A stretch of DNA of 64,000 bases from Hoeflea sp. (lineage in GTDB: Bacteria; Pseudomonadota; Alphaproteobacteria; Rhizobiales; Rhizobiaceae): NCBI GenBank assembly GCA_019084245.1, contig JAHRFE010000013.1:124001-188000 (forward strand), written 5' to 3'. Of the stretch, positions 801 through 26,831 are shown one piece after another. The notes below the pieces were generated by a model. That model searched no databases, was not told where the DNA came from, and saw nothing but the letters and a program-made list of their open reading frames with translations. Made by a program: the position numbers and the translations under genes. The number at the start of each line of letters is the position of its first letter. Within the stretch, counting starts at the first letter, position 1.

Positions 801-1802
801 TCAGGCTGCGGCCTGGTACTGCTTGCGCTCGGCGCGCTCCTGTTGCGGCGAGCGGTTGTAAAGCTCGCGGTAGCATTTGGAGAAATGCGAGGCGGAGACA
901 AAGCCGCAGGCGACCGCCACCTCGACCACCGGCATCGGAGACTGGATGAGCAGGTGCCGCGCCCGGTCGAGCCGGATCTCGAGATAGTAGCGCGCCGGCG
1001 AGCGGCCCATTTCCTGGCGGAACAGGCGTTCGATCTGGCGCCGCGACAGGCCGGCGTCGTCGGCGATCTCGATCAGCGACAGCGGTTCGGACAGATTGGC
1101 TTCCATCAGTTCGATGATCGACAGCACCTTGGCATTCTGGACGCCGAGGCGGGCGCGCAGCGGCAGGCGCTGGCGGTCATGGGCGTTGCGGACCCGGTCG
1201 GTCAGCGCCATTTCACAGATGCGGTTGACCAGCGTGTCGTCATGATCCTCGCCGATCAGGCTCAGCATCATGTCGAGTGCTGCAGTGCCGCCGGCACAGG
1301 TGTGGATGTTGCCGTCGATTTCATAGAGATCGGCATAGACATGGGCCTTGGGGAAGGCCTCGGAAAAGCCCGGCAGATTTTCCCAATGGATGGCGCAGCG
1401 CCGGCCCGACAGCAGCCCGGCCTTCGCCAGGATGTGGGCGCCGGTGCACAATCCGCCGATGGCCACGCCGCGATTGTTCTCCTCACGCAGCCAGGCGAGC
1501 ACCGACTTGTTGTCGAAACGCTCGACATTGACGCCGGAACAGACGAACACCATGGTGGGCCGGTTCTCGCCCGACAGGCTGCGGCGTTCGTCGGCGAGCG
1601 AGGTGTTGACCGCCACCACGACCTGGTTCGAGGCGGGCACAGGCGCGCCGTCATGGGACGCCAGACGCCATGTGTAGCACTCGTAGCCCAGCATCCGGTT
1701 GGCCAGGCGCAAGGGCTCGATCGCCATGGAAAATGCGATCATGGAAAATTCCGGAACCATGAAAAAGACGATCGACCGCATATGCTTCGTATGTGAGGGC
1801 AT
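801..1802 (-). CDS. GlxA-family transcriptional regulator (DJ-1/PfpI plus AraC HTH)
   Basis: This is a 333-residue regulator. Residues 1-200 form a DJ-1/PfpI-like glutamine amidotransferase-type sensor domain, with the elbow motif GGLCTGAH around Cys119. Residues about 225-325 form an AraC-type double helix-turn-helix. The architecture is that of GbdR, CdhR and ArgR, which respond to glycine betaine, carnitine or arginine in pseudomonads. Because a betaine-type ABC transporter and a corrinoid methyltransferase system lie in the same region, a role as activator of quaternary-amine catabolism is a reasonable inference, but the inducer is unknown. It is convergent with the response regulator, 15 bases apart. 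Confidence 0.9.
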   Translation of the reverse strand: MPSHTKHMRSIVFFMVPEFSMIAFSMAIEPLRLANRMLGYECYTWRLASHDGAPVPASNQVVVAVNTSLADERRSLSGENRPTMVFVCSGVNVERFDNKSVLAWLREENNRGVAIGGLCTGAHILAKAGLLSGRRCAIHWENLPGFSEAFPKAHVYADLYEIDGNIHTCAGGTAALDMMLSLIGEDHDDTLVNRICEMALTDRVRNAHDRQRLPLRARLGVQNAKVLSIIELMEANLSEPLSLIEIADDAGLSRRQIERLFRQEMGRSPARYYLEIRLDRARHLLIQSPMPVVEVAVACGFVSASHFSKCYRELYNRSPQQERAERKQYQAAA

Positions 1803-4171: not shown

Positions 4172-6208
4172 TCAGCCGCGCCTGCGTCCGCCTCGCCGGC
4201 GGCCGGCGCCGGGTTCGATGCCGGCGGCGGCGTCGGTGTCCATCGAGCGTTCGGGCAGCCTGACCACTTCGGTGAGCCTGGGGAAGGCGTCGATCTTGTT
4301 GGGGAAGGCCATGGCGTTGACGAAATGCTCCTGGAACTTCGGCTCCAGCGCGGTTTCGATCTTCTCGATGCGGGTGACCGTGTGTTCGATCTCGCGGCGG
4401 TGGTTGCGGTTCAAGAGCGCCATGCGGGCGCCGGTGCCTGCGGCGTTGCCGACGGCCTTGACCTTCTCGAGATCGCAATCAGGCACGAGACCCAGCACAA
4501 GGGCATATTTCGGATCGATGAAGGAGCCGAAGGCGCCGGCAAGGCCGATGCGGTCGACGCTGGTGATGCCCTGCTTGTCCATCAACAGCTTGACGCCGGC
4601 GTAGAGCGCCGCCTTGGCAAGCTGGATGGCGCGGACGTCGGTCTGGGTCACCATCAGCTTCTGCTCGCCGTCGCGCAGGAGATAGGCGAAGGTGCGTCCG
4701 GTGCTGACGATGCGCTCGCTTTGGGCTGCGAGATCGCCATTGATGACGCCGTCCTCGGTGATGATGCCGGCGAGATACATCTCGGCGATGATCTCGATGA
4801 TGCCCGAGCCGCAGACGCCGGTGACGCCGACGGTCTTGGCCAGTTCGTCGAAGCCCGGTTCATCCGACCAGGGCTCGATGCCGATGACGCGGTAGCGCGG
4901 CTCGAAGGTGACCGGATCGATGCGGATGCGCTCGATGGCGCCGGGGGCCGCGCGCTGGCCGCAGGAGATCTCGGCGCCCTCGAAGGCTGGACCGGTGGGC
5001 GAGGAGGCGGCCACCGTGCGGATGGAATTTCCGAGCACGATCTCGGCATTGGTGCCGACGTCGACGAGCAGCATCATCTCGTCCTGGCGGTGCGGGCCTT
5101 CGGTCAGCGTGGCGGCCGCCGCATCGGCGCCGACATGGCCGGCGATGCAGGGCAGCATGTAGACCCGGGCGCCAGGATTGAGCGGAAGGCCGATCTCTGA
5201 GGATCTGACATTGACCGCGCCGGAAACGGCGAGGGCAAAGGGTGCGCCGCCGAGTTCGGTCGGATCGATGCCCAGGAAAAGATGGTGCATGATCGGATTG
5301 CCGACGAAAACCGCGTCGAGAATGTCGGCGCGGTCGATCTCGCCTTCCTTGCAGACCTTGTCGATCAGCCCGTTGATCGCCTCGCGCACGGCGATGGTCA
5401 TGCCCTCGCGGCCCTCGGGGTTCATCATCACGTAGGAGACGCGGCTCATCAGATCCTCGCCGAAGCGGATCTGCGGATTGGAGGTGCCGGACGAGGCGAG
5501 CGTGCGGCCCGACAGCAGTGAGGACAGATGCATGGCGATGGTGGTGGACCCGATATCGCAGGCGATGCCATAGGCCTCGTTCTTGAGGCCGGGGTAGAGC
5601 GCCACAAGTGTTGCCTGGCCGCCATGGACCGGCTCGTGAACGGCCGCGGTGACGGTCCAGTTGCCCTTGCGCAGGATCTGCTGCACCTGGCCGAGCAGAT
5701 AGGTGTCGATTGCGAGATTCTTGAAGCCCCAGTCGGCCTCGATCGCCAAGAGCAGCCGATCGAGATCGCCCAGCGGCTTGTGCATGTCGGGCTCCTCGAC
5801 CTCGACATAGCACATGTGGATTGCCGGATTGCGCTCGATGACGCGGCCGTCGGAATCCTTGCGCACAACTTGTGCATTGACCACGGCGTCCTGCGGGATG
5901 TCGATGACCAGGTCGCCCAGGATCCTGGCCGAGCAGGACAGCCTGCGGCCGGGCTTCAGGTCGCGCTTCTCTGCGTAGCGAACCTCATTGCCGCCAAAGG
6001 GCGTGATGTGGTCGTTGGACGAGGTGATGCCGTGCTTGGCGAAGACGCCTTCCTGCACGTCGACCTGGCAGCGCCCGCAGATGCCGCGGCCGCCGCAGAC
6101 ACTTTCCACATGCACGCCGAGTTGCCGCGCGGCATCGAGTACGGGGGTGTCGGTCGGAAAGCGCCCGCGCTTTCCCGACGGCATGAACAGGACGAGGTGG
6201 TCGGTCAT
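4172..6208 (-). CDS. Corrinoid-protein reductive activator (2Fe-2S plus ASKHA domain, RACo/RamA type)
   Basis: This 678-residue protein starts at the ATG at 6208 (GGTGA ribosome-binding site); a TTG at 6226 is less likely. The N-terminus is a plant-type 2Fe-2S ferredoxin domain with Cys38, Cys44, Cys47 and Cys92. After a linker, residues about 215-640 are an ASKHA-type ATPase domain (YGIACDIGSTTIA). This is the build of RACo, which uses ATP to return inactive Co(II) corrinoid to Co(I). Here it would reactivate the corrinoid protein at 12507-13208. The C-terminus ends in an Arg/Gly tail (GRRRGGRRRG). The GIY-YIG cassette separates it from the upstream methyltransferase gene on the same strand. 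Confidence 0.88.
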   Translation of the reverse strand: MTDHLVLFMPSGKRGRFPTDTPVLDAARQLGVHVESVCGGRGICGRCQVDVQEGVFAKHGITSSNDHITPFGGNEVRYAEKRDLKPGRRLSCSARILGDLVIDIPQDAVVNAQVVRKDSDGRVIERNPAIHMCYVEVEEPDMHKPLGDLDRLLLAIEADWGFKNLAIDTYLLGQVQQILRKGNWTVTAAVHEPVHGGQATLVALYPGLKNEAYGIACDIGSTTIAMHLSSLLSGRTLASSGTSNPQIRFGEDLMSRVSYVMMNPEGREGMTIAVREAINGLIDKVCKEGEIDRADILDAVFVGNPIMHHLFLGIDPTELGGAPFALAVSGAVNVRSSEIGLPLNPGARVYMLPCIAGHVGADAAAATLTEGPHRQDEMMLLVDVGTNAEIVLGNSIRTVAASSPTGPAFEGAEISCGQRAAPGAIERIRIDPVTFEPRYRVIGIEPWSDEPGFDELAKTVGVTGVCGSGIIEIIAEMYLAGIITEDGVINGDLAAQSERIVSTGRTFAYLLRDGEQKLMVTQTDVRAIQLAKAALYAGVKLLMDKQGITSVDRIGLAGAFGSFIDPKYALVLGLVPDCDLEKVKAVGNAAGTGARMALLNRNHRREIEHTVTRIEKIETALEPKFQEHFVNAMAFPNKIDAFPRLTEVVRLPERSMDTDAAAGIEPGAGRRRGGRRRG

Positions 6209-6249
6209 TGGGTCACCATTTTGCAATTGAGGCGCGATGCTCTATCCTG

Positions 6250-6308
6250 ACCCTCATCCTGAGGTGTGAGCATGAGCAAAGCGAATGCGAGCCTCGAAGG
6301 ACGAGGGG
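6250..6308 (+). repeat. Palindromic repeat flanking GIY-YIG gene (left)
   Basis: This is an imperfect palindrome with outer arms CCCTCATCCTGAGG and CCTCGAAGGACGAGGG. The copy at 6630-6690, on the other side of the GIY-YIG gene, is in inverted orientation. It ends 4 bases before the GIY-YIG start codon and lies in the 5' region of the minus-strand activator gene. Confidence 0.85.
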
Positions 6309-6312
6309 CAGG

Positions 6313-6618
6313 ATGGTCGAGGCAACGGTCTACATTTTGCGTTGTGCGGATGGGAGCTATTACACCGGACTCACCAAGCAGGCGGTTGAGGCTCGTGTAT
6401 GGGAGCATAACAATTTGCCAAGTGAAACCAGTTATACGGCCAAGCGACGGCCGGTTGAGCTGGTGTTTTCCGAGACCTACGATTTGATTACCGACGCGAT
6501 TGCCCGTGAACGCCAAATCAAGGGATGGTCGAGGCGAAAAAAGGAAGCCTTGATCGCCTTGAACTATGAAGGATTGCCAGAACTTTCGCGGCGCGGCCAC
6601 CTTATACCAAAACCATAG
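6313..6618 (+). CDS. GIY-YIG domain endonuclease-like protein
   Basis: The 101-residue product is a single GIY-YIG nuclease domain. It has V-Y-I-L-R-C-A-D-G-S-Y-Y-T-G near the N-terminus, then Arg in EARVWEHN and a Glu in ARERQIKGWSR, as in UPF0213/YhbQ-type proteins. The ATG at 6313 has a GGGGCAGG ribosome-binding site inside the end of the left repeat. The gene is less GC-rich than its neighbours, is on the opposite strand, and splits two minus-strand genes of one pathway. It is enclosed by inverted palindromes, so it looks like an inserted cassette. The substrate is unknown; a role in repeat mobility is only a hypothesis. Confidence 0.85.
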   Translation: MVEATVYILRCADGSYYTGLTKQAVEARVWEHNNLPSETSYTAKRRPVELVFSETYDLITDAIARERQIKGWSRRKKEALIALNYEGLPELSRRGHLIPKP

Positions 6619-6629
6619 CGTCCAGTGGC

Positions 6630-6690
6630 CCACACCCTCGCCCTTCGAGGCTCGCCCCTTCGGAGCTCGCGCCTCAGGATGAGGGTGTGG
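6630..6690 (-). repeat. Palindromic repeat flanking GIY-YIG gene (right, inverted)
   Basis: Outer 10-bp arms CCACACCCTC and GAGGGTGTGG are perfect. The interior (CCCTTCGAGGCTCG, then GCCTCAGGATGAGGG) is the reverse complement of the left copy at 6250-6308. It begins 11 bases after the GIY-YIG stop codon. Confidence 0.85.
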
Positions 6691-6758
6691 GAGCGATCTC
6701 GGTCCAATCGCAAATCTGAAACAATGGTTTGCCAGATTCATAGTCCAGCTATCTTTGC

Positions 6759-7718
6759 TCACGCAGTTCCCGAGCGGCCGGCGCGGCCGCCGCGGCGGCG
6801 GCTGTCGCTGCCCGAGGGCGCCTGGGACTGCGGGGCGGGGGCGGAGCCCGCCACATGTGGCTGGTAGTCCTTGTAGGTCTTGATCCAGTTGGTGCAGTTG
6901 GGATCGGTGCCATTGAGCACATTGGCGGCGCGCACGGCTTCCATTTCCTGCGGACGGCAGGGGTTCATGATCGCGGACGTCATGCCGGCGCCGATCACCA
7001 TCGGGATGAAGCCGGCATTGATGCCGTGGCGGTGGGGCAGGCCGAAGGAAACGTTGGAGAGGCCGCAGGTGGTGTTGACCTTGAGCTCGTTGCGCAGCCG
7101 GTAGAGCAGCGCAAAGACCTGGCGGCCGGCATCGCCCAGCGCGCCGATCGGCATGACCAGCGGGTCGACGACGATGTCATGCGGCTTGATGCCGTAATCC
7201 ATGGCGCGCTCGACGATCTTCTTGGCGACCGCAAAGCGGACATCGGGGTCCATGGAAATGCCGGTCTCGTCGTTTGAGATCGCCACCACCGGCACGTCGT
7301 ATTTCTTGCACAGCGGCAGGATCGCCTCGAGCTTTTCTTCCTCGCCGGTCACGGAGTTGACCAGCGGGCGGCCCTTGGCGACCTTAAGTGCGGCTTCGAT
7401 GGCCGCAGTCACCGAACTGTCGATCGACAGCGGGATGTCGACCAGGCCCTGGACGATTTCCATGGTCTGCACCAAGAGGCCCGGCTCGGTCTCGTTCGGG
7501 TTGACCGAGGTCACGCCCGCATTGACGTCGAGCATGGTGGCGCCGGCGGCGACCTGTTCGAGCGCGTCCTTGATCACGGTCTCGAAATTTCCGGCGATCA
7601 TCTCGGCGGCCAGCTTCTTGCGCCCGGTCGGGTTGATGCGCTCGCCGATCACGCAGAAGGGCTGGTCAAAGCCGATGATGACTTCGCGGGTGGCGGAGGC
7701 GACGATAGTGCGGGTCAT
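6759..7718 (-). CDS. Pterin-binding methyltransferase (methylcorrinoid:tetrahydrofolate methyltransferase type)
   Basis: This 319-residue protein of the pterin-binding (DHPS-like) TIM-barrel family has the motifs GERINPTGRKK (about 25-35), LDVNAG (63-68), a PLVNSVTGE strand and an NTTCGLSNVSFGLP segment. The last motifs are typical of MetH-type and acetogen MeTr/AcsE proteins rather than folate-synthesis DHPS. It should move the methyl group between the corrinoid protein and tetrahydrofolate. The start at 7718 has an AAGGAT ribosome-binding site. The C-terminal ~30 residues are a Pro/Ser linker followed by SRRRGGRAGRSG, a tail also seen in the activator and Bmt proteins. A palindromic site at 7741-7756 lies just upstream. 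Confidence 0.9.
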   Translation of the reverse strand: MTRTIVASATREVIIGFDQPFCVIGERINPTGRKKLAAEMIAGNFETVIKDALEQVAAGATMLDVNAGVTSVNPNETEPGLLVQTMEIVQGLVDIPLSIDSSVTAAIEAALKVAKGRPLVNSVTGEEEKLEAILPLCKKYDVPVVAISNDETGISMDPDVRFAVAKKIVERAMDYGIKPHDIVVDPLVMPIGALGDAGRQVFALLYRLRNELKVNTTCGLSNVSFGLPHRHGINAGFIPMVIGAGMTSAIMNPCRPQEMEAVRAANVLNGTDPNCTNWIKTYKDYQPHVAGSAPAPQSQAPSGSDSRRRGGRAGRSGTA

Positions 7719-7740
7719 GTTCGATCCTTGCAGTGAAGAC

Positions 7741-7756
7741 ATAAAGACTTGTTTAT
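7741..7756 (-). promoter_or_regulatory. Candidate operator (ATAAA-N6-TTTAT) before the pterin methyltransferase
   Basis: ATAAAGACTTGTTTAT forms a dyad and is preceded by GAC. The same GACATAAAGA start followed by a TTATA block occurs in the promoter region of the bmt-like gene at 20573-20588. The shared site before two methyl-transfer genes suggests one regulator, possibly an ArsR-family SAH sensor (SahR type), but the family is inferred. Confidence 0.45.
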
Positions 7757-7799
7757 ATCGTTATAGAATTTTGGGCGGAGATGCAAGCCTTTGGGCCTG

Positions 7800-8897
7800 T
7801 CAGGATGTCTCGGAGTCACCGACCGCACCGGCCATCTCATGCGGGATTTGCCTGGGTTCCTCCAGGATTTCCTCCATGCGGGCGGCCACCAGTTCGTCCA
7901 CCGGATTGGGCTCCTTGCGCCAGGGCCTGCGGCCCTTGAGCACGCCCGATTCGTGCACGATCTCGGCGACGAATTCCTCCTGGCGATAGGCCATGACGTG
8001 GATTCCGGAGACGCCGTCGATCTCCTTGACCTCGTTGATGATGTCGATGCAGAGCTGCTTGCCTTCCTTCTTCTGGTCCTGCGCGCCTTCCAAGCGCCTG
8101 ATGATCTCGTCGGGAATATGCACGCCCGGCACGTTGGCGCGCATCCATTTGGCGGTTCGCGCCGAAGCCAGCGGGCCGACGCCGCACATGATGAAGCACT
8201 CCTTGTCGAGCCCCATCTCGCGCACCTGTTGCATGTAGCGCCTGAACATCGGCACGTCGTAGCAATACTGGCTCTGGACGAACTGGGCGCCGGCGGCGAT
8301 CTTCTTGGCCAGGCGATGCGGCCGGAAATCGTAAGGCGGCGCGAAGGGGTTGATGGCGGCGCCGAGGAACACGGTTGGCGGGCTGGTCAGCTTGCGGCCC
8401 GACAGGAACTTCGAATTGTCGCGCATGATCCGGATGGTTTCCAGGAGCGACATGCAGTCGAGATCGAACACCGGCTTGGCGCCGGGCTGGTCGCCGGCCT
8501 GCACGCCGTCGCCGGTCAGGCACAGAATGTTCTGCACACCCATGGCCGAGGCGCCGAGCACGTCACCCTGGATGGCGATGCGGTTCCTGTCGCGGCAGGA
8601 GATCTGCAGGATCGGCGCATAGCCCATGCGGGTCAGCAGGGCGCAGATGCCGACCGAGGACATGTGGGCGTTGGCGCCCGAGGCGTCGACGGCGTTGATG
8701 CCGTCGACCCAGCCGTCGAAGATCGCGGCGCGTTCATAGACATCGTGCGGATTGGCGCTGTCGGGCGGGTTGAGCTCGGCGGTCACGGCGAATTCGCCGC
8801 GGCGCAGGATGCGTTCGAGGCGTCCGTGGGACGAGTGCCCGGGCAGCGGCTCCAGCGGGGCCGAGGGATCAAGCGGATTGGCGTCGGCCTGGCTCAT
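7800..8897 (-). CDS. metF: Methylenetetrahydrofolate reductase catalytic subunit (MetF type)
   Basis: This 365-residue MTHFR TIM-barrel protein interconverts 5,10-methylene-THF and 5-methyl-THF. Recognisable parts are the N-terminal segment FAVTAELNPP, the strand NILCLTGDG and the segment FVQSQYCYD. The ATG at 8897 overlaps the stop codon of the upstream Cys-rich gene (ATGA), showing translational coupling. In this setting it probably works in the oxidative direction, taking methyl-THF made by the corrinoid system towards methylene-THF. It lacks the longer regulatory region of eukaryotic enzymes. A classical metF for methionine synthesis may exist elsewhere in the genome. Confidence 0.92.
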   Translation of the reverse strand: MSQADANPLDPSAPLEPLPGHSSHGRLERILRRGEFAVTAELNPPDSANPHDVYERAAIFDGWVDGINAVDASGANAHMSSVGICALLTRMGYAPILQISCRDRNRIAIQGDVLGASAMGVQNILCLTGDGVQAGDQPGAKPVFDLDCMSLLETIRIMRDNSKFLSGRKLTSPPTVFLGAAINPFAPPYDFRPHRLAKKIAAGAQFVQSQYCYDVPMFRRYMQQVREMGLDKECFIMCGVGPLASARTAKWMRANVPGVHIPDEIIRRLEGAQDQKKEGKQLCIDIINEVKEIDGVSGIHVMAYRQEEFVAEIVHESGVLKGRRPWRKEPNPVDELVAARMEEILEEPRQIPHEMAGAVGDSETS

Positions 8898-9484
8898 TGA
8901 GCGGCTCCGGGGTTGGCGGCCGCTTCGCGGCTGGCTGCGGCGCTTGCGGTGACCCGGAGCCAGGAGGAGGTTTCGCGCAGCGACTGATCCACCGGCTTCT
9001 GCACATTGAGGATCATGTCGCGGCCGTTCATCTGCTGCGCGCCGGACCAGGCCTGCACCCAGACGCAGGGCATGTCGGGCTCGACCTCGCAATTGCCGTT
9101 GGCGCGGACGCCGCCGCAGGGGCCGTTGCGCAACTGCTTCGGGCAGTTCATCGGGCAGGACATGCCGGTGGACGACAGCACGCACTGGCCGCACATGCGG
9201 CAGTCGAAGAGGAAGCCCTTGACGTGTTTCTCGACAAATTTCACCGGGCCCTCGGCGCGCTGGTAGCCGATTGCCTTCCACATCGGATGCAGCTTCAGGA
9301 ACACATCGGCGAAACGGGCGTAAAACCATTCCAGCGCGCGGGAATGGCGCACCGACCAGAGGCGGATGGCGAAGCTGCGGGCGTTGCGGCCGGTGGCCGA
9401 AACGCCCGACGGCTTGTAGGCCGTCTTCGCCGCGGCCTTCTTGTTGAGGCTCGCCTGCGTGGTCTTGGTCGGTTCGTCAGCCAT
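8894..9484 (-). CDS. MTHFR C-terminal-domain protein, Cys-rich MetV-like partner
   Basis: The 196-residue protein carries the MTHFR_C Cys-rich domain found in MetV of acetogens. Eight Cys (95, 98, 101, 110, 114, 123, 132, 140) lie in FDCRMCGQCVLSSTGMSCPMNC and the following CGG and Cys residues, enough for two [4Fe-4S] clusters. It overlaps metF by ATGA, so the pair is likely made as a complex. It starts at the ATG at 9484, inside the end of the preceding gene (8-base overlap). In MetVF complexes MetV links MetF to an external electron carrier; whether it does so here is inference. Confidence 0.85.
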   Translation of the reverse strand: MADEPTKTTQASLNKKAAAKTAYKPSGVSATGRNARSFAIRLWSVRHSRALEWFYARFADVFLKLHPMWKAIGYQRAEGPVKFVEKHVKGFLFDCRMCGQCVLSSTGMSCPMNCPKQLRNGPCGGVRANGNCEVEPDMPCVWVQAWSGAQQMNGRDMILNVQKPVDQSLRETSSWLRVTASAAASREAAANPGAAQ

Positions 9485-9782
9485 GGCTCTCCCTGCCTCC
9501 GCCCTTGACCAGCGCCACCAGGCGTTCCTTGTCATAGGCTGCTTCAAGCTCGGCCGCGGCCTTCTCGGCCTCGGCTTCCAGATCGTCGGAGACTTCCACC
9601 GGGTCGGCGCGCCGCCATTCGGCGAGGTAGTCATCGGTCTCGGCAGCACCCGTGCGCATGGCGCACATGTCGATCGCCTCGGTGAACCGAAGCGACAGCT
9701 CCCGCTTGGCGGTCGCGCGTCCCTTCTTGATGATCACCTGGGCGGGAATGTCGCGCCAGTAGACGATGATGCAGTTGGCCAT
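9477..9782 (-). CDS. Virulence-factor-domain small protein
   Basis: This 101-residue protein resembles the family annotated as virulence factor (I-I-V-Y-W-R-D-I-P-A-Q-V near the N-terminus, then a Glu/Ala-rich helical C-terminal half). It starts at ATG 9782 with an AAGGAG ribosome-binding site and overlaps the MetV-like gene by 8 bases, so it is the first gene of a three-gene unit with metV-like and metF. The family name comes from annotation, not from a proven role. The operon position points to a function in one-carbon transfer, perhaps in assembly or electron supply. Confidence 0.75.
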   Translation of the reverse strand: MANCIIVYWRDIPAQVIIKKGRATAKRELSLRFTEAIDMCAMRTGAAETDDYLAEWRRADPVEVSDDLEAEAEKAAAELEAAYDKERLVALVKGGGRESHG

Positions 9783-9924
9783 GGGGGTCTCCTTGGAAGT
9801 TACAATGCGCATGGGGATTTCTGGCCGCTTCGCTCACGACGACGCGCGGCGCGTCAAAAACGACCTGAATGCAAACGGAGGTAATCGGCTTGATCGCCGG
9901 GGTCAAATCCGGACCGGAAATCGG

Positions 9925-10695
9925 CTACCAGATGCCCTTGGCGAGACCGGTCGAGAGATAGGTCCAGATTGGCGGATGGAACCGCTGCACGGAGGGCAGG
10001 TCGCTCGATTGCGGCTCGATCGTCCCGTTCAGCACGTCTTCCACGGCCTGGGTGACCATCTCGCGCGAGCCCGCGGCCATGGCCAGCGAATCAGTCATGA
10101 GCGTTTCGCGCGGATGCGGCGTGAGGAAGGCCTGGCGGAGCGTGGCGCCGGTATCGACGCCGGCGTCGACCAGATGCACGGTGGCGCCGTAGTTTTCAAC
10201 GTCGCGGGTGGCGCGCGCCCACCAGCCGCCGGCCAGCCCGCGATATTTGGGATTGATCCCGGAATGATAGTTGATCACCCGGCAGGGGATGGCCGAAAGC
10301 GTCGCCTTCGACAGCATCCGGCATCCTGCGAGGAAGATGAGATCCGGCTTGCGCGCAGCGATCAGGTCCAGGCAATCGGCGCCATTGGCGGAGGAGACGG
10401 GCGTGATGGTGAGCGAAGGCAACGGCTCGGTCTGCAGGCCGTGGGTGGCAATGATCTCGTCGGTCCGCGCACCGGCAAGGCGTTTGCCGAAACGGGAGAC
10501 GGTCATGGTGACAAACTGCCCGCCGGTCTGGAACCAGCCGACCTTGCGGGCGCGGCGCCTGAGAAAAAGGCTCTTCGGCTCGGGCTGCTCCAGGGCCACC
10601 TCGACAGTGCCAAAGCGCGACGCCAGCGCATTGACGATGACCCAGGCATAGGCGCCGCCGGAGGTGATGACGAGGAGTGTCGGTCTCTTGGTCAT
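9925..10695 (-). CDS. Formyltransferase-fold protein
   Basis: This 256-residue protein has the formyl_trans_N fold used by 10-formyl-THF-dependent enzymes (Fmt, PurN, sugar-nucleotide formyltransferases). The catalytic region reads V-I-N-Y-H-S-G-I-N-P-K-Y-R-G, with the Asn-His pair and a downstream Asp in LVDAGVDTGA. The N-terminal ~80 residues are atypical and there is no Fmt C-terminal domain, so the acceptor is unknown. The ATG at 10695 is chosen over an upstream TTG at 10716. Its location beside one-carbon genes may be meaningful, but it is 142 bases upstream of their operon and could be independent. Confidence 0.8.
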   Translation of the reverse strand: MTKRPTLLVITSGGAYAWVIVNALASRFGTVEVALEQPEPKSLFLRRRARKVGWFQTGGQFVTMTVSRFGKRLAGARTDEIIATHGLQTEPLPSLTITPVSSANGADCLDLIAARKPDLIFLAGCRMLSKATLSAIPCRVINYHSGINPKYRGLAGGWWARATRDVENYGATVHLVDAGVDTGATLRQAFLTPHPRETLMTDSLAMAAGSREMVTQAVEDVLNGTIEPQSSDLPSVQRFHPPIWTYLSTGLAKGIW

Positions 10696-10802
10696 GCATT
10701 TTTCCGCTCGTATCAAAGCTCGACGTTAGCATGGCCGAGGTTAAGAACCGGCTACGGCGCGGTCGGAGTGAACCGGCGAAGGTTGCGGCGACCTGAAGCG
10801 GC

Positions 10803-11447
10803 TCAGAACAGACGGATCAGCACGGCTCCGGTGAAGGCCACGACAAGAGTGGCCACCGTGATCGAGACAATGCCGGAAACGACGCCCAAGAGCAGGCAAT
10901 TGCCGTCCCGCTCGGTATGGGCGACGCCGAGAACGGCTACCGCAAAGGCCGGCAGCCAGTTCCCGAAGGGAATCGGCAGCACGCAGGTGATGCCCAGCAG
11001 CAAGGCGAAAATCCCGAACAACCGTTCGCGGATCGGGCCGTCAAGTGGCCAGTTGCGCGGGCGGACCCAGGTTTCGGCGTTGCGCAACCAGGGCGAGACG
11101 CGCGTGACCATGCGCTGGAAGGTGCCCCGGTCGACAGTGTAGTTGGCGAGCGCCCGGGGTAGCCAGACCTTGTGGTAGCCGATCACCATCTGCCAGGCGA
11201 CAAACACCATGGGCAAACCCAGCACCATGGTTGCGCCTGGCGGCAGCGGAATGAGGTTGGGAATGGCGAAGACCAGGAGGAACGCGCCGAACGAGCGGTC
11301 GTCGAGCGCGGTGGCGATCTCGCCCATGCTGATGCGGTCACCCGCGTCGCGAGCCAGGCGGTCGAGCAGCTCGGAGAGTTTTTCGGGGTGTTTGGGGTCG
11401 CTAGGGGCGATGGAAGGCTGGTGAGACAAGGCGGACTGCGGATTCAC
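10803..11447 (-). CDS. ExoD-family membrane protein
   Basis: This 214-residue protein of the ExoD family has several hydrophobic segments (about 52-72, 74-90, 142-160, 162-176, 188-210), with the conserved L-V-F-A-I-P-N-L-I-P-L-P-P-G-A motif. ExoD was named for an exopolysaccharide and alkaline-sensitivity phenotype in Sinorhizobium; its biochemical role is unclear. The start is a GTG at 11447 with only a weak AGGG element upstream, so the exact N-terminus is uncertain. Confidence 0.85.
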   Translation of the reverse strand: MNPQSALSHQPSIAPSDPKHPEKLSELLDRLARDAGDRISMGEIATALDDRSFGAFLLVFAIPNLIPLPPGATMVLGLPMVFVAWQMVIGYHKVWLPRALANYTVDRGTFQRMVTRVSPWLRNAETWVRPRNWPLDGPIRERLFGIFALLLGITCVLPIPFGNWLPAFAVAVLGVAHTERDGNCLLLGVVSGIVSITVATLVVAFTGAVLIRLF

Positions 11448-11557
11448 TGGGGTTACCCTGTATTTCGATCTCCCGATATGTAAGCATGGTTTGCTTAAGA
11501 ATTATGGCTGTCCAAAAATATATTTGGGCGTGTCCAGGAAGCGCCTGTCCGGCAGGC

Positions 11558-12175
11558 TCACAGCCGCGCCAGGGCGTCCGTCAGATCGCCATATCCGGTC
11601 AATCTCCGCTCAAAGCGAAGCCCCAGGCGCTCAGCCGCGGTGCGGGCCTTGTCTTCCAGATCGGGATCGTCGGTCTGGGCCAGATACAGCGCCCGCTCGT
11701 AGTGACCGAAATAGGTGTCGCGCAATTCGGGATAGCGGTCGAGGCCCAGCGGCCGGATCAGGAAGGCGTCGAAGTGGCGCGCGAGGAAATCGGTGATGAA
11801 AAAGGTCGTCATCATGTCGTCGCCCGCAGCCTCGAAGGCGGCATTGCCCATATAGAAGGAGAAACAGTGCGGGCCGGCAATCCTCTCGACGCCATGGGCG
11901 GCGCAGACCTTGTCGAGGTCGCCGCCGGTGCCGCAATCGGCGTAACCGATGAAGATGTGCTCATATCCCTCCTGCCGGGCAGACTCGATGGCGCGCTCCA
12001 CGGCCGGTGCGATCCGATCGGGATGATGGTGAAAATTGGCGTCGATGCATTTGAGATCGATGTGATCGTGTCCGAGCTGCGCATTGACCGCCAGAACCTC
12101 GCGGGCAATCATGCCACAGGCGATGACGCGAACCTTTTCACGGACCTTATCTGTCTGCATTTGCGGCTTGACCAT
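11558..12175 (-). CDS. DUF1638 protein associated with corrinoid methyltransferases
   Basis: This 205-residue DUF1638 protein contains IACGMIAREV near the N-terminus, FHHHPDRI, IFIGYADCGTGG and a CFSFYMGN segment. Conserved His and Cys residues suggest a metal or cofactor site. The family is known mainly from gene clusters of MttB-type methyltransferases and their corrinoid proteins in bacteria and methanogens; its function has not been established. The ATG at 12175 is preferred over an adjacent TTG. It is divergent from a small lipoprotein gene and lies near the corrinoid protein gene on the same strand. Confidence 0.85.
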   Translation of the reverse strand: MVKPQMQTDKVREKVRVIACGMIAREVLAVNAQLGHDHIDLKCIDANFHHHPDRIAPAVERAIESARQEGYEHIFIGYADCGTGGDLDKVCAAHGVERIAGPHCFSFYMGNAAFEAAGDDMMTTFFITDFLARHFDAFLIRPLGLDRYPELRDTYFGHYERALYLAQTDDPDLEDKARTAAERLGLRFERRLTGYGDLTDALARL

Positions 12176-12239
12176 CAAATCGCCTTGTATGCGGTGAACA
12201 TTCTTTTGGCGTCAATTTCAACGCGAAGGATGAAGACCG

Positions 12240-12365
12240 ATGACACTTACCAAGATTTCCACCGTAATGCTCGTTGCATTGATGCTTGCATCCTGCGCCA
12301 ATACCATTCGCGGCGTCGGCCGCGACGTCAACCAGTCTGCGGATGCGGTTCAGGATTCGTTCTGA
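12240..12365 (+). CDS. Entericidin-like small lipoprotein
   Basis: The 41-residue product has a short signal peptide ending in the lipobox L-A-S-C, followed by N-T-I-R-G-V-G-R-D-V-N-Q-S-A-D-A, the hallmark of the entericidin EcnA/EcnB family. Lipidation would be at Cys19. An AAGGA element lies about 10 bases before the ATG. A 12-bp stem-loop follows the stop codon. In enterobacteria entericidins form a toxin/antidote lipoprotein pair; in alphaproteobacteria single copies are common and their role is unclear. It is unrelated in function to its methyltransferase neighbours as far as can be seen. Confidence 0.85.
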   Translation: MTLTKISTVMLVALMLASCANTIRGVGRDVNQSADAVQDSF

Positions 12366-12372
12366 TGCTTTT

Positions 12373-12400
12373 GTCACTCGAATGAGGCCATTTGAGTGAC
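12373..12400 (+). terminator. Stem-loop after the entericidin gene
   Basis: A 12-bp stem (GTCACTCGAATG with CATTTGAGTGAC, one G-U pair, loop AGGC) begins 8 bases after the entericidin stop. There is no clear T-run, so termination may be inefficient or factor-dependent. Confidence 0.55.
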
Positions 12401-12467
12401 GCCGCGCCTGAACCCCAAAATGGCCCTTGCGCATCCGATCGGATGCTCGGCGGCAGATCAGGCTGCA

Positions 12468-12493
12468 CACAGGCGCCGAATTCGGCGCCTGTG
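12468..12493. terminator. Perfect 26-bp palindrome between convergent genes
   Basis: The arms CACAGGCGCCGAA and TTCGGCGCCTGTG are perfect and uninterrupted. The palindrome lies just beyond the corrinoid-protein stop and after the convergent entericidin gene, the position expected of a bidirectional transcription stop. No strong T-run is present. Confidence 0.55.
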
Positions 12494-12506
12494 AATTGCC
12501 GGCCTG

Positions 12507-13208
12507 TTAGGCTCCGGCGGCGAGCCGGTTGTGGCGGCGCTTGATCAGTTCCTTGGCGGTCTCGACGGCCACGGCCGCATCGCGGCAATAGGCGTCGGCG
12601 CCCACGGCCTTGCCGAATTCCTCATTGAGCGGCGCCCCGCCGACCAGCACGATGAAATCGTCGCGGATGCCCTTTTCCTTCATCGTGTCGATAACGACCT
12701 TCATATAGGGCATGGTCGTGGTCAGGAGCGCCGACATGCCGAGGATATCGGGCTGTTCGCGCTCGATCGCCTCGATGTATTTTTCCACCGGGTTGTTGAT
12801 CCCGAGGTCGATCACATCGAAGCCGGCGCCTTCCATCATCATGCCGACGAGGTTCTTGCCGATGTCGTGGATGTCGCCCTTGACGGTGCCGATCACCATC
12901 TTGCCGAGCTTCGGTGCGCCGGTTTCGATCAGCAGCGGGCGCAGGATGAACATCCCGGCCTTCATCGCATTGGCGCTCATCAGCACTTCGGGAACGAACA
13001 GAATGCCGTCGCGGAAATCCTCGCCGACGATTCGCATGCCCTCGACCAGCGCCTCGGTCAGGAGGTCGTAGGGCGTCCAGCCGCGGCTGAGAAGGATGTT
13101 GGTGCCTTCCTCGATCTCTTCCTTGAGCCCGTCATACAGGTCGTCATGCATCTGCTGCACAAGTTCATCATCGGAGAGTTCGGAAAGAATGATTTCATCG
13201 TCAGACAT
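12507..13208 (-). CDS. Methyltransferase cognate corrinoid protein (MtbC/MttC type)
   Basis: This 233-residue B12 carrier has an N-terminal four-helix cap (about 1-95, with EALVEGMRIVGEDFRDGILFVPE split over two helices) followed by a Rossmann-type B12-binding domain. The cobalt-ligating His is His114 in G-D-I-H-D-I-G-K-N, with SALL and LVGGAPL completing the signature. It accepts a methyl group from the MttB-family enzyme encoded divergently at 13460 and hands it to the pterin methyltransferase. Start ATG 13208 has an AGGGAG ribosome-binding site. A perfect palindrome follows the gene. Confidence 0.93.
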   Translation of the reverse strand: MSDDEIILSELSDDELVQQMHDDLYDGLKEEIEEGTNILLSRGWTPYDLLTEALVEGMRIVGEDFRDGILFVPEVLMSANAMKAGMFILRPLLIETGAPKLGKMVIGTVKGDIHDIGKNLVGMMMEGAGFDVIDLGINNPVEKYIEAIEREQPDILGMSALLTTTMPYMKVVIDTMKEKGIRDDFIVLVGGAPLNEEFGKAVGADAYCRDAAVAVETAKELIKRRHNRLAAGA

Positions 13209-13356
13209 CGGTGACTCCCTTGATATTACTTGTCCGGCGTTTCGACGCACCAGATTTACCCTGCATAGCGATATAGGCGATTGTTTGCAAAACGTTCCTT
13301 GAATGCGACGCGCATGTCGGAAAAAGCGACGGCGTGTCTTTTATGCAATATTCCTT

Positions 13357-13377
13357 GAGCGCCAAGGCTTGGCGCTC
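13357..13377. promoter_or_regulatory. Inverted repeat in the corrinoid/MttB divergent promoter region
   Basis: A 9-bp perfect inverted repeat (GAGCGCCAA / TTGGCGCTC, 3-base loop) lies in the 251-bp spacer between the divergent corrinoid-protein and methyltransferase genes, about 80 bases before the latter. It could be an operator or an mRNA leader hairpin. Confidence 0.4.
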
Positions 13378-13459
13378 AGAGGAAGGTGCGGGGAGCGGTT
13401 TTGGCTAGCATGGCGGAATCGGCGCGATGGTGCGCCATTTCAGAATATGCAGGCTCTTC

Positions 13460-15049
13460 ATGGCTCATCCAGACACGCTTTCCCCCCCAGACCTGGCTCA
13501 AGAGGCAGCGCCGGAGGCATCCGCCGGCCGGCGCGGCAAGGGTGCCGCAGGGCGGCGCGCGCTCAGAAGCGGCGGCGGGCCCGGCGTTTCGATGCCGTTC
13601 ATCCTGCGCAAGCTCGGCGTATACGAGGTGCTGGACGAAGAAGGCCTGAGCCTGATCGAGCGCAATGCCGACACGGTGCTTCAGGAAATCGGCATCGAGT
13701 TCCGCGATGACGCCGAAGCGCTTCAGCTGTGGCGCGAAGCCGGCGCCGATGTGACCGGTGAGCGGGTGCGATTCCCTCGCGGGCTGTGCCGCGAACTGCT
13801 GAAGACGGCGCCGGAAGTCTTCACCCAGCATGCCCGCAATCCGGCGCGCTCGGTGCAGATCGGCGGCAAGGCCACCGTGTTCGCGCCGGTCTACGGTCCG
13901 CCCTTCGTCCGCGATCTCGATGGCGAGCGGCGCTATGCGACAATCGAGGATTTCCGCAATTTCGTCAAACTGGCCTACATGGCGCCGGCGATGCACCATT
14001 CCGGCGGCACCGTGTGCGAGCCGGTCGACGTGCCCGTCAACAAGCGGCATTTCGACATGGTCTACAGCCACATGAAATACTCGGACAAGCCGTTCATGGG
14101 CTCGGTGACCGCGCCCGAACGGGCCGAGGACACGATCGAGATGTGCAAGATCCTGTTCGGCGCCGAGTTCGTCGACCAGAATTGCGTCACGCTCAACCTG
14201 ATCAACGCCAATTCGCCGATGGTGTTCGACGAGACCATGCTGGGCGCGCTCAAGGTCTATGCCCGCAACAACCAGGCCTGCGTCGTCTCGCCGTTCATCC
14301 TCGCCGGCGCCATGAGCCCGGTGACGGTCGCCGGCACGCTCACGCAGATTCTCGCCGAAGTGCTGGCGGGTGCGGCCCTGACCCAGCTGATCCGGCCCGG
14401 CGCGCCGGTGCTGTTCGGCACCTTTGCCGCCTCGATCTCGATGCAATCGGGCGCGCCGACCTTCGGCACCCCCGAGCCTTCGCTGGTCTCCTATGGCGCG
14501 GCGCAGTTGGCGCGGCGGCTGAAGATCCCGTTTCGCACCGGCGGTTCGCTCTGCGGCTCCAAGGTTCCCGATGCGCAGGCAGCCCACGAAAGTGCGGCAA
14601 CGCTCAACATGACGCTGCTGGCGGGCACCAACTTCGCCCTGCATTCGGCCGGCTGGCTTGAGGGCGGGCTGGTCAGTTCCTATGAGAAGTTCATGATCGA
14701 CATCGATCAGCTCGGCATGCAGCAGCGCTTCGCCGAGGGGATCGACCTGTCGGAAACCGGCCAGGCGCTCGACGCCATCGCCGAGGTCGGGCCTGGCAGC
14801 CATTATCTCGGCTGCGCTCATACCCAGGCCAATTTCCAGCAGGCGTTCTACCGCTCTGCGCTGGCCGACAACAATTCCTATGAGCAGTGGCTTGCCGAAG
14901 GCGAGAAGCGCATCGAGGAACGTGCCCGCGCCCTTTGCCGGTCGTGGCTCGACAGCTATGTGGCGCCGGACCTCGACCCGGCGATTGACGCCGCTCTGCT
15001 CGCGTTCATCGCCCGGCGCAAGGACGAGATGCCCGACGCCTTCACTTGA
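13460..15049 (+). CDS. MttB-superfamily methyltransferase without pyrrolysine
   Basis: This 529-residue trimethylamine methyltransferase (MttB) family protein has no in-frame amber codon, so it belongs to the non-pyrrolysine branch. Characterised members of that branch (MtgB and relatives) demethylate quaternary amines such as glycine betaine, carnitine or proline betaine. It should methylate the corrinoid protein encoded divergently upstream. Family segments include MPFILRKLGVYEVLDEEG, a GTVCEPVDVP strand, FGTFAASISMQSGAPTFGTP and QANFQQAFY. The ATG at 13460 is chosen because it has an AGG element and because the upstream codons look non-conserved. The substrate cannot be told from sequence; betaine is the best guess from context. 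Confidence 0.9.
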   Translation: MAHPDTLSPPDLAQEAAPEASAGRRGKGAAGRRALRSGGGPGVSMPFILRKLGVYEVLDEEGLSLIERNADTVLQEIGIEFRDDAEALQLWREAGADVTGERVRFPRGLCRELLKTAPEVFTQHARNPARSVQIGGKATVFAPVYGPPFVRDLDGERRYATIEDFRNFVKLAYMAPAMHHSGGTVCEPVDVPVNKRHFDMVYSHMKYSDKPFMGSVTAPERAEDTIEMCKILFGAEFVDQNCVTLNLINANSPMVFDETMLGALKVYARNNQACVVSPFILAGAMSPVTVAGTLTQILAEVLAGAALTQLIRPGAPVLFGTFAASISMQSGAPTFGTPEPSLVSYGAAQLARRLKIPFRTGGSLCGSKVPDAQAAHESAATLNMTLLAGTNFALHSAGWLEGGLVSSYEKFMIDIDQLGMQQRFAEGIDLSETGQALDAIAEVGPGSHYLGCAHTQANFQQAFYRSALADNNSYEQWLAEGEKRIEERARALCRSWLDSYVAPDLDPAIDAALLAFIARRKDEMPDAFT

Positions 15050-15162
15050 ACACAGCCCGATAAAGCCAGGGAGACAGGCGGTCAGGATAAAGTTGCAGGC
15101 CTCATTCACAAGGAGGTCTGGCGCTCTGCGTTCCGCGATGGCGGATCGGGCGGCTGAGGCCG

Positions 15163-15876
15163 ATGGCCGGGGCTGGTGACATCGAAACGCTTGAGGCGGA
15201 ACTCGCCGGGCACGGGCTTTGTCTGCGCGGATGGGTGTTTCCGGACGCGGAGACGGCACCCCGGCTCAGTACTGGCGGGGCCGCCGCTGCGGTCGGGCTC
15301 ATCGGCCATCTTGGCGGCGATTTCTGGCCCATCTTCGAGACCTGGCATCACCAGCATTCCGGCGTCGAAAACCCGTTCGACAGCTGGTCCAAGGCGGTGA
15401 TCACGCCGCTGGCGCTTTCGGCGGGCGGCGAGGCGGTGTTTCCGTCCGACAAGCCGTGGCAACCGTTCCAGCAATGGGCCAGGGCAGCCGAAGGATTAAA
15501 GGGGTCGCCTTTGGGGATGCTCATTCACCCGGTCTACGGCCTCTGGCACGGCTATCGCGGCGCGATCCTGTTTGGGCCGGAGGCGCTGGCGCAACTGGGG
15601 CTTTCGGCCGCAGCGAACGAGGCCGGCTCGGCTGTCGGAGCGACGATTCACCCTTGCGACACCTGCGTCGATAAGCCGTGTCTCTCCGCCTGTCCGGTTG
15701 ACGCGTTCAGCCCGAACGGGTTCGATGTTGCATCCTGCCGCGCATATCTCAAGACTGATCCGGGCCGAAAGGGCTGCATGAGCACAGGATGCCTGGCGCG
15801 CGACGCCTGTCCTGTCGGGCGCGCGCATCGCTATGACGGTGCACAGATCCGGTTCCATATGACGGCTTATTCATAA
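15163..15876 (+). CDS. 2x[4Fe-4S] ferredoxin-like protein
   Basis: This 237-residue protein has a ~160-residue N-terminal region I do not recognise and a C-terminal dicluster region. Eight Cys (165, 168, 173, 177, 192, 205, 210, 216) are arranged as C-D-T-C-V-D-K-P-C-L-S-A-C-P and later GCMSTGCLARDACP, enough for two [4Fe-4S] clusters. It follows the MttB-family gene by 113 bases on the same strand and may be co-transcribed. A role as electron donor to the corrinoid activator or to the MetV-like protein is plausible, but inferred from position only. There is no signal peptide, so it is cytoplasmic. Confidence 0.8.
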   Translation: MAGAGDIETLEAELAGHGLCLRGWVFPDAETAPRLSTGGAAAAVGLIGHLGGDFWPIFETWHHQHSGVENPFDSWSKAVITPLALSAGGEAVFPSDKPWQPFQQWARAAEGLKGSPLGMLIHPVYGLWHGYRGAILFGPEALAQLGLSAAANEAGSAVGATIHPCDTCVDKPCLSACPVDAFSPNGFDVASCRAYLKTDPGRKGCMSTGCLARDACPVGRAHRYDGAQIRFHMTAYS

Positions 15877-19533: not shown

Positions 19534-20544
19534 TCAGCCCCGGCGGCCGCGGCGTTCGCGGGTGGGGGCGGGGTTGTCGGTGGCGACCGTGTTGCGCATC
19601 GGGCCGATGCGTTCGACGATCGTCTCCACCGTCGGGCGCTGCGCCTTGATGTGGCTGTCCACGGCCTCGCGCATGGCGGCCAGATGGTCGCAGGAGGTGC
19701 CGCAGCAGCCGCCGATGATGCGGGCGCCGGCGTCGATGGCGAGGCGGGCGTAATCGGCCATCAGCGGCGGCGTGCCGGAATAATGGATTTCGGTGCCGCG
19801 GAATTCCGGGATGCCGCAATTGCCCTTGACCACCACGATGGCGTTCGGATCAGCTTCGGTCATGTCGAGCAGCGAGGACAGGATGTCCGACGCGCCGACG
19901 CCGCAATTGGCGCCCACGGCCAGCGGACCGTCGCCGATGTCCTTGGCCAGCGAATGGATGTCGCGCGGGTGCACGCCCATCATGGTCTTGCCGGCGGTGT
20001 CGAAGGAGCCGGTGTAGACATAAGGCAGGCCGGCATCGGTGGCGGCCTGGGCTGCAGCGCGGATTTCGTCGGTGGCCGACATGGTTTCGATCCAGACGAC
20101 GTCGATGCCGCCAGCCTTGAGGCCTGCGATCTGTTCGGCGAAGGATTCGACCGCCGAGTCGTAGGTCATGGCGCCGAGCGGCACCAGCAGGTCGCCGGTG
20201 GGGCCGACGGAGCCGGCGACGATCACCTTGCGCGGCGCCTTGTCGGCGACGGCGCGGGCAATCTCGGCGGCCTTCTTGTTGAGCGCGAACACCCGGTCAT
20301 CGGCCTGGTGCAGTTTCAGCCGGTTGCGGGTGCCGCCAAAGCTGTTGGTCAGGATGATGTCGGACCCCGCATCGACGAAATCCTGGTGCAGCTTGGTGAT
20401 CTTCTCCGGCGCCGTCTCCAGCCACATCTCGGGCGCTTCGCCCGATTCCAGACCCATCGCGAACAGATTGGTGCCCGTGGCGCCGTCGGCAAGAAGAATG
20501 CCCTTTTCTGACAAGAGGTCGGCGAGCGGATTGGGTGCGGACAT
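19534..20544 (-). CDS. bmt: Betaine-homocysteine S-methyltransferase-like protein
   Basis: This 336-residue homocysteine S-methyltransferase family protein has an N-terminal GATGTNLFAMG loop, VGANCGVG with the first zinc Cys, and the C-terminal GGCCGT pair of zinc ligands. It resembles the rhizobial glycine betaine-homocysteine methyltransferase, which makes methionine and dimethylglycine. With a betaine transporter divergently spaced upstream this is the likely role, although a methyl-accepting role in the corrinoid system cannot be excluded. The C-terminus ends in an Arg/Gly tail (RERRGRRG) like two other methyl-transfer proteins in the window. A palindromic site lies 29 bases upstream. Confidence 0.82.
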   Translation of the reverse strand: MSAPNPLADLLSEKGILLADGATGTNLFAMGLESGEAPEMWLETAPEKITKLHQDFVDAGSDIILTNSFGGTRNRLKLHQADDRVFALNKKAAEIARAVADKAPRKVIVAGSVGPTGDLLVPLGAMTYDSAVESFAEQIAGLKAGGIDVVWIETMSATDEIRAAAQAATDAGLPYVYTGSFDTAGKTMMGVHPRDIHSLAKDIGDGPLAVGANCGVGASDILSSLLDMTEADPNAIVVVKGNCGIPEFRGTEIHYSGTPPLMADYARLAIDAGARIIGGCCGTSCDHLAAMREAVDSHIKAQRPTVETIVERIGPMRNTVATDNPAPTRERRGRRG

Positions 20545-22655: not shown

Positions 22656-22811
22656 ATTCACGCTCCAAATACGGAAATTAGTTTTGGCCGATCGTCAGGC
22701 GATCAGCGATTCATCGCTGCCTTTGGCCAGATGAATGCACCTTTGCTGGTGCGTGCCCCCGGTCGCAGCCCAGACCGCTGCGGCTTTGTTTCCCCTGCCG
22801 CAGATCACTGG

Positions 22812-22843
22812 ATAAAAGTGTGGCGGACCGAGGCCCGCCACAC
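22812..22843 (-). terminator. Stem-loop between binding-protein and permease genes
   Basis: A perfect 9-bp stem (GTGTGGCGG / CCGCCACAC) sits 13 bases after the binding-protein stop and is followed on the minus strand by TTTTAT. It probably acts as a leaky terminator or mRNA stabiliser, giving more binding protein than membrane subunits. Confidence 0.7.
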
Positions 22844-22855
22844 ATAAGCGATGGA

Positions 22856-26359: not shown

Positions 26360-26419
26360 GCCGAACGATGGCGCTGTCGCGATTGACAGCGCGGGCGCAC
26401 GTCCCTATCACTTGGGTCT

Positions 26420-26768: not shown

Positions 26769-26831
26769 GCACCGGTTGAGAGCCGGACCTTTGGGAGAGG
26801 TTTTCTCCCGAAGCCATTCACGGAGGTTGTC

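What the first reader, a model, noticed from the sequence alone, without database searches (positions are those of the whole stretch)
4172..15876. Corrinoid methyl-transfer system built from acetogen-type parts in an apparent aerobe
Seen: MttB-family methyltransferase, corrinoid protein (His114 ligand), pterin methyltransferase, RACo-like activator, MetV-like and MetF proteins, DUF1638 and a 2x[4Fe-4S] protein within 12 kb. Known: this set demethylates quaternary amines and feeds methyl-THF in anaerobes. Inference: here it gives an oxygen-tolerant route for betaine methyl groups, supported by the adjacent betaine-type transporter, a Bmt-like gene, a GbdR-like regulator and a full B12 cluster. 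How the Co(I) state is protected under oxygen is an open question.
Basis: partly seen in the sequence, partly recalled or inferred. Interest (0 to 1): 0.75.

Follow-up and report, generated by a model that had tools for sequence, protein, structure and literature searches.

The report
Modular B12 methyl-transfer system, extra reductase
A Hoeflea-like bacterium carries a known B12-based machine that strips methyl groups from betaine and probably also makes methionine, plus one unnamed partner protein that looks like a miniature B12-handling reductase and may help the machine work in air.

The parts
4172..6208 (-). RACo/RamA-like reductive activator (2Fe-2S + ASKHA)
   Evidence: Pfam RACo_C_ter, middle and linker regions, Fer2; only PF14574 match in the genome
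6759..7718 (-). MtgD, methyl-THF:corrinoid methyltransferase (pterin-binding)
   Evidence: PRK07535 392.6 bits over cut-off 259, Pterin_bind (searched from 7712)
7800..8897 (-). MetF2, methylene-THF reductase paralogue
   Evidence: PF02219 122 bits
8894..9484 (-). MetV-like Fe-S subunit, 8 Cys between residues 95 and 140
   Evidence: PF12225; cysteine count
9477..9782 (-). small PF13769 ('Virulence_fact') protein, function unknown
   Evidence: Pfam; matched in 71 of 80 named loci
11558..12178 (-). DUF1638, activation-linked protein of unknown mechanism
   Evidence: PF07796 98.1 bits; only match in the genome; fitness role in P. inhibens is from PMC5764234
12507..13205 (-). MtgC, corrinoid protein, DIHDIG with His113
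   Evidence: PF02607, PF02310; motif
13460..15049 (+). MttB-family (MtgB-type) methyltransferase, non-pyrrolysine
   Evidence: PF06253 772 bits; closest PDB chain 4yyc, then 2qne and 9yce, the last named glycine betaine methyltransferase
15163..15876 (+). CblC-fold + 2x[4Fe-4S] protein ('Fdx2'), candidate corrinoid reductase or processing partner
19534..20544 (-). MtgE / Bmt, homocysteine methyltransferase module
   Evidence: NF005718 560.9 bits over 338; MetH-type chain 1q7m E 5e-40 against E 1.6e-12 for the best BHMT chain; Cys214, Cys280, Cys281
20720..23869 (-). betaine/choline-type ABC transporter (ATPase, permease, binding protein)
801..1802 (-). GbdR-like AraC regulator
   Evidence: NF052371 367 bits, below cut-off 480
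26407..26781 (+). cobalamin riboswitch
   Evidence: RF00174 62.1 bits

Best explanation
The cluster encodes a modular B12 methyl-transfer hub. One corrinoid protein (MtgC) takes a methyl group from a quaternary amine through MttB and passes it through MtgD to tetrahydrofolate, where MetF2/MetV oxidises methyl-THF. In the other direction MtgD loads MtgC from methyl-THF, and MtgE moves the methyl group to homocysteine, giving methionine. RACo and DUF1638 re-reduce MtgC when its cobalt oxidises. Shown here: the parts, their recurring order, and the absence of matches to the MetH activation domain and MetE in this genome. Shown in relatives by others: both activities. Inferred: that the window's own proteins do the same, and that the unnamed protein behind mttB, with a CblC-like B12 fold joined to two [4Fe-4S] clusters, supplies low-potential electrons to the corrinoid or processes and loads it, so helping the system survive oxygen.
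For: Family assignments. No PF02965, no MetE PF01717; one strong corrinoid-cap protein (a second match elsewhere is only just over the cut-off, 23.1 vs 23 bits) in a 99.99% complete genome. MtgE is nearer to MetH than to BHMT among solved chains. In 199 genomes of the order, DUF1638 tracks the lack of the MetH activation domain: 40 of 71 with it lack PF02965 against 10 of 128 without; and 5 of 5 genomes with DUF1638 but no MttB lack PF02965. Published function: PMC12478193, PMC5764234. Fdx2: fold, 8 cysteines kept, MttB upstream on the same strand in 80 of 80 closest named loci, 77 of them within 300 nt, median 127.5 nt between aligned ends, co-occurrence with MttB: 46 of 59 Fdx2 genomes among 289 (Fisher p 7e-28).
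Against: No expression or growth data for this strain; substrate of the window MttB not tested. P. inhibens Bmt made methionine directly from betaine in vitro without B12 (PMC12366255), so MtgE may also act alone. A second homocysteine methyltransferase lies on C15, so the split enzyme may not be the only route to methionine. Fdx2: sequence link to CblC/QueG is weak (E 0.03 to 1.1) and Foldseek TM-scores are modest (0.35 to 0.51 in the first 19 rows); 13 of 59 Fdx2 genomes have no MttB and 16 of 62 MttB genomes have no Fdx2; in five genomes of another family of the class the homologues lie by none of the MttB/MtgC/MtgD/MtgE/RACo/DUF1638 genes; it is the least conserved of ten cluster proteins compared (median 51% identity to the window, against 85-90% for MttB and MtgC and 59% for DUF1638). 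The 80 loci are the best-scoring and closely related; Fisher tests ignore kinship.
Confidence: 0.78

Rival explanations
1. The cluster only demethylates betaine; methionine is made elsewhere, for example by Bmt acting directly on betaine or by the second homocysteine methyltransferase on C15.
For: P. inhibens Bmt turned betaine or DMSP plus homocysteine into methionine in vitro (PMC12366255, abstract and passages). A second PF02574 protein lies on C15 beside MttB paralogue 4 and two dimethylglycine-dehydrogenase-like genes.
Against: No PF02965 or MetE match, so growth without betaine would need this cluster or the C15 enzyme; mtgC and mtgD mutants of R. pomeroyi are methionine auxotrophs (PMC12478193); the published in vitro assay used 200 uM enzyme with 200 uM donor.
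Confidence: 0.12
2. On the Fdx2 sub-question: Fdx2 is a general B12-processing protein (a bacterial CblC counterpart that strips or reduces incoming corrinoids), not a dedicated activator of the methyltransferase.
For: Fold closest to CblC; family members without MttB lie beside an IcmF-like mutase (L161), beside a methylmalonyl-CoA mutase with an MtgC-like/UroD-type/DUF1638 set (L155), and near Peripla_BP_2 proteins (L154, L161); RACo already exists as activator.
Against: The two [4Fe-4S] clusters, absent from CblC, point to electron delivery as in QueG/RdhA; the tie to mttB in 80 of 80 closest named loci is operon-like; 13 of 16 MttB-less loci looked at showed no B12-related neighbour.
Confidence: 0.4
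3. On the Fdx2 sub-question: Fdx2 is an electron carrier for MetVF, passing electrons from methyl-THF oxidation to respiration, and binds no corrinoid.
For: Purified MetVF-type enzymes use ferredoxin rather than NAD(P)H (PMC8760232, passages); both genes are in one cluster here.
Against: Fdx2 is present in 27 of 80 named loci with no MetF2/MetV match in the stretch held, some of them cut short; the B12-type fold would be unexplained.
Confidence: 0.12

Closest known systems
MtgBCDE of Ruegeria pomeroyi, dual glycine betaine demethylase / methionine synthase (PMC12478193)
   Same: Same modules (PF06253, PF02310, PF00809, PF02574), RamA-like activator, DUF1638 and MetF2. The paper reports the S. 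meliloti genes co-localised with the cobalamin operon, as here.
   Different: The paper's main text has no mention of MetV, ferredoxin or 4Fe-4S (word search); here MetV, PF13769 and Fdx2 are built into the cluster, and one hub may serve four MttB genes.
Split methionine synthase of Phaeobacter inhibens (PMC5764234)
   Same: Three-part MetH with RamA-like protein and DUF1638.
   Different: In the passages read no MttB was assigned and the genes have scattered locus numbers; here the parts lie in about 16 kb with mttB among them.
QueG / reductive dehalogenases (class III B12 + [4Fe-4S] enzymes) and CblC/MMACHC
   Same: Fdx2 model: CblC-type fold followed by a two-[4Fe-4S] module with 8 kept cysteines.
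   Different: 237 residues, too short for the C-terminal helical domain of QueG or the extra parts of RdhA; CblC lacks the ferredoxin module.
MetVF-type methylene-THF reductase of acetogens (PMC8760232)
   Same: MetF plus MetV with 8 cysteines, adjacent genes.
   Different: Presumed to run in the oxidative direction in an aerobe; none of the ten cluster proteins scanned is RnfC- or Hdr-like.
CmuA/CmuB chloromethane system of Methylobacterium (PMC3621897, abstract start and passages)
   Same: Corrinoid and THF dependent methyl transfer in an aerobe, so aerobic use of such systems is not new.
   Different: Different substrate, plasmid-borne.

Membership tests
MtgBCDE split methionine synthase / betaine demethylase | Separate MttB, corrinoid, pterin and homocysteine modules plus RamA-like protein, DUF1638 and MetF2 | tested here: met
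MtgBCDE split methionine synthase / betaine demethylase | Missing classical MetH (PF02965) and MetE, a usual but not universal companion trait | tested here: met
   no match in the window's genome
MtgBCDE split methionine synthase / betaine demethylase | Methionine auxotrophy and loss of betaine growth on mtgC/mtgD deletion | not testable with these tools
   shown for R. pomeroyi (PMC12478193)
NCBIfam MtgC (NF047996, NF047995) | Score over the curated cut-off | tested here: not met
   218.3 vs 370 and 174.6 vs 310
RACo / AcsV (NF040756) and RamA (TIGR04270) | Score over the curated cut-off | tested here: not met
   378 vs 800 and 108.7 vs 500; Pfam RACo domains are met
NCBIfam betaine-homocysteine methyltransferase (NF005718) | Score over the curated cut-off | tested here: met
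   560.9 vs 338; betaine-binding residues of human BHMT not tested here, reported missing in S. meliloti (PMC12478193)
Class III B12/[4Fe-4S] enzymes (QueG, RdhA) | CblC/nitroreductase-type cobalamin fold followed by a two-[4Fe-4S] module | tested here: met
Class III B12/[4Fe-4S] enzymes (QueG, RdhA) | Bound base-off cobalamin and two clusters | not testable with these tools
   needs purified protein
QueG proper | DYH motif and C-terminal helical-repeat domain (PMC4646009, passages) | tested here: not met
   no DYH in the sequence; 237 residues against 367-384 for the QueG chains; no QueG family match
MetVF-type methylene-THF reductase | MetF adjacent to a MetV subunit with cysteines for two [4Fe-4S] | tested here: met
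   PF02219 and PF12225 with overlapping ends; 8 Cys

The most novel reading that the evidence does not exclude
The protein at 15163-15876 founds a third family of B12 plus [4Fe-4S] enzymes beside QueG and the reductive dehalogenases: a minimal, soluble, CblC-fold ferredoxin protein, widespread in Alphaproteobacteria, that re-reduces or reloads the corrinoid of methyltransferases, so that an anaerobe-type methyl-transfer system can run in air.
Probability: 0.4. Interest if true: 0.78.

Novelty: new variant of a known kind. Interest (0 to 1): 0.52.

Why it matters
Corrinoid methyltransferases need Co(I), which oxygen destroys, and how aerobes keep them active is poorly understood. RACo/RamA and DUF1638 are the proposed helpers, but Price et al. 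had no proposal for what DUF1638 does (PMC5764234), and no electron donor is known for the activator in this cluster. A B12-fold iron-sulfur protein in the same operon makes that question directly testable. The structural paper on QueG (PMC4646009, passages) foresaw further unknown families of this class with C-terminal ferredoxin modules; this looks like one. It also bears on CblC, called eukaryote-only in a recent paper (PMC13376404, passages).

Tried and rejected
Rejected: that the Bmt-like gene is simply a BHMT-type betaine-homocysteine methyltransferase (nearer to MetH; the published in vitro activity is told as a rival). Rejected: that the iron-sulfur protein is a plain ferredoxin (fold) or QueG (no DYH motif, too short).

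Of 16 Fdx2 loci without MttB that I looked at (L122-L124, 3 of 5 of the order sample; L149-L161, 13 of 13 of the class sample), two (L155, L161) lie beside clear corrinoid enzymes and one (L154) near a Peripla_BP_2 gene; in the other 13 I saw nothing B12-related. Ten genes were scanned and ten near L122 and L124; the rest were judged by eye from the first residues of chosen frames. Of the five f74 loci and three loci from outside the class read, none held a match to MttB, MtgC, MtgD, MtgE, RACo or DUF1638.

Rows dropped before alignments: A1 took the window plus 25 of the 29 other order-sample loci held (of 57 genomes with a match); A2 the window plus 55 of 80 named loci; A3 the window plus 47 of 74 DUF1638 frames. 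The distances use one MttB per genome from a capped list, so '27 of 57' is a lower bound. MtgD was searched from 7712, two codons inside its ATG at 7718.

Full report
Observation. Profile searches give a RACo/RamA-type activator at 4172-6208 (-), a pterin methyltransferase at 6759-7718 (-), MetF at 7800-8897 (-), a MetV-like protein at 8894-9484 (-), DUF1638 at 11558-12178 (-), a corrinoid protein at 12507-13205 (-) and MttB at 13460-15049 (+); the eighth is a frame with cysteines for two [4Fe-4S] clusters at 15163-15876 (+). The MttB frame has no internal stop, so it is the non-pyrrolysine type. A small PF13769 protein (9477-9782), a formyltransferase-like gene and an ExoD gene lie among them. 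The cobalt-ligand motif of the corrinoid protein is DIHDIG at 111, so the ligand is His113. Betaine-type transporter genes, a GbdR-like regulator below its equivalog cut-off, cob genes and a cobalamin riboswitch lie around it.

Host. The nearest named record is Hoeflea alexandrii (L031; 84-86% DNA identity in four shared stretches, 80% in a fifth); Hoeflea belongs to Rhizobiaceae, Alphaproteobacteria. The window lies in a 4.8 Mb genome, 99.99% complete. CobN, of the aerobic B12 route (pathway recalled), is present.

What it is. Price and co-workers (PMC5764234, passages) found a three-part methionine synthase in Phaeobacter inhibens, with a RamA-like protein and DUF1638 needed for it. Mausz and co-workers (PMC12478193; parts 1-3 of 6 and passages) showed in Ruegeria pomeroyi that the corrinoid protein MtgC and the pterin protein MtgD serve both methionine synthesis and betaine demethylation, with MttB-family MtgB as betaine head and MtgE as homocysteine head. 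They state that in S. meliloti these genes, the two reductive modules and the cobalamin operon are co-localised. The window is that arrangement. In the 80 named loci, which are the best 80 of 549 found by their Fdx2 gene, most of them by title from rhizobia and kin, MttB is matched in 80, MtgC in 77, DUF1638 in 76, MtgE in 73, PF13769 in 71, MtgD in 68, RACo in 59, MetV in 53 and MetF2 in 52; some of these loci are cut short.

Methionine synthase role. In the window's genome the MetH activation domain PF02965 has no match, MetE PF01717 has none, and PF02607 matches MtgC plus one place just over the cut-off. PF02574 matches MtgE and one protein on C15. Across 199 genomes of the order, PF02965 is missing in 40 of 71 with DUF1638 and in 10 of 128 without (Fisher p 9e-14, kinship ignored). 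Five genomes have DUF1638 but no MttB; all five lack PF02965 and have RACo. Eleven have MttB but no DUF1638; nine of these have PF02965, and the other two are 61% and 67% complete. This fits a hub whose basic duty is methionine. Yet 31 of 71 DUF1638 genomes also have PF02965, so DUF1638 is not only a stand-in for MetH. MtgE passes NCBI's betaine-homocysteine methyltransferase cut-off but is nearer to MetH chains than to BHMT chains. Against a pure module reading, P. inhibens Bmt alone made methionine from betaine in vitro (PMC12366255, abstract and passages).

Several substrate heads. The genome has four MttB proteins: window, C21 (55% identical to it), C27 (43-45%), C15 (28%), but one RACo match and one DUF1638 match; sharing is inferred. 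For the window, C21 and C27 proteins the nearest solved chain is 4yyc, then 2qne and 9yce (named glycine betaine methyltransferase); for C15 it is 9yce and 2qne. The C15 copy lies beside two FAD/GcvT proteins of the dimethylglycine-dehydrogenase kind and a homocysteine methyltransferase. Substrates are not known.

Mechanism. Shown: parts, order, distribution, predicted fold. Known in relatives: dual methyl transfer. Inferred: MttB to MtgC to MtgD to THF to MetF2/MetV, with MetV pointing to a ferredoxin-like rather than NAD(P)H partner (PMC8760232, passages); RACo and DUF1638 reactivate MtgC; Fdx2, by analogy with QueG and CblC, either feeds electrons to the corrinoid or processes it for loading. 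I cannot tell these two apart; the loci without MttB favour processing, the operon position favours the MttB system.

Novelty. The system is already published. New, within the searches, is the recognition of Fdx2 as a CblC-fold [4Fe-4S] protein tied to the aerobic corrinoid hub. The QueG structure paper (PMC4646009, passages) anticipated such families.

Noticed in passing
L120:9292-16830 (genome C15): A fourth, distant MttB lies beside two dimethylglycine-dehydrogenase-like FAD/GcvT proteins, a homocysteine methyltransferase and an aldehyde dehydrogenase: a possible second N-methyl catabolic island.
   Followed up: partly
window 9477-9782: The PF13769 ('Virulence factor') protein is matched in 18 of the 27 named loci that show no MetF2/MetV match, e.g. 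L045, L065, L073; its name is likely misleading and its function unknown.
   Followed up: partly
L155:2225-7875: An Fdx2 relative stands between a methylmalonyl-CoA mutase and an MtgC-like/UroD-type/DUF1638 set: an apparently different corrinoid methyltransferase system.
   Followed up: partly
L161:1317-5290: An Fdx2 relative lies about 20 nt downstream of an IcmF-like fused mutase (B12-binding, MeaB and mutase domains), with a Peripla_BP_2 gene nearby.
   Followed up: partly
genomes G006, G013, G057, G094, G098, G129, G157, G181: These eight have MttB, RACo, Fdx2 and the MetH activation domain but no DUF1638 match, hinting that DUF1638 serves the methionine branch; they fall in only two families, so perhaps two losses.
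   Followed up: partly
window 6240-6740: A short GIY-YIG-like frame on the + strand lies between RACo and MtgD, flanked by inverted matching sequence like an intergenic repeat; judged by eye only.
   Followed up: no
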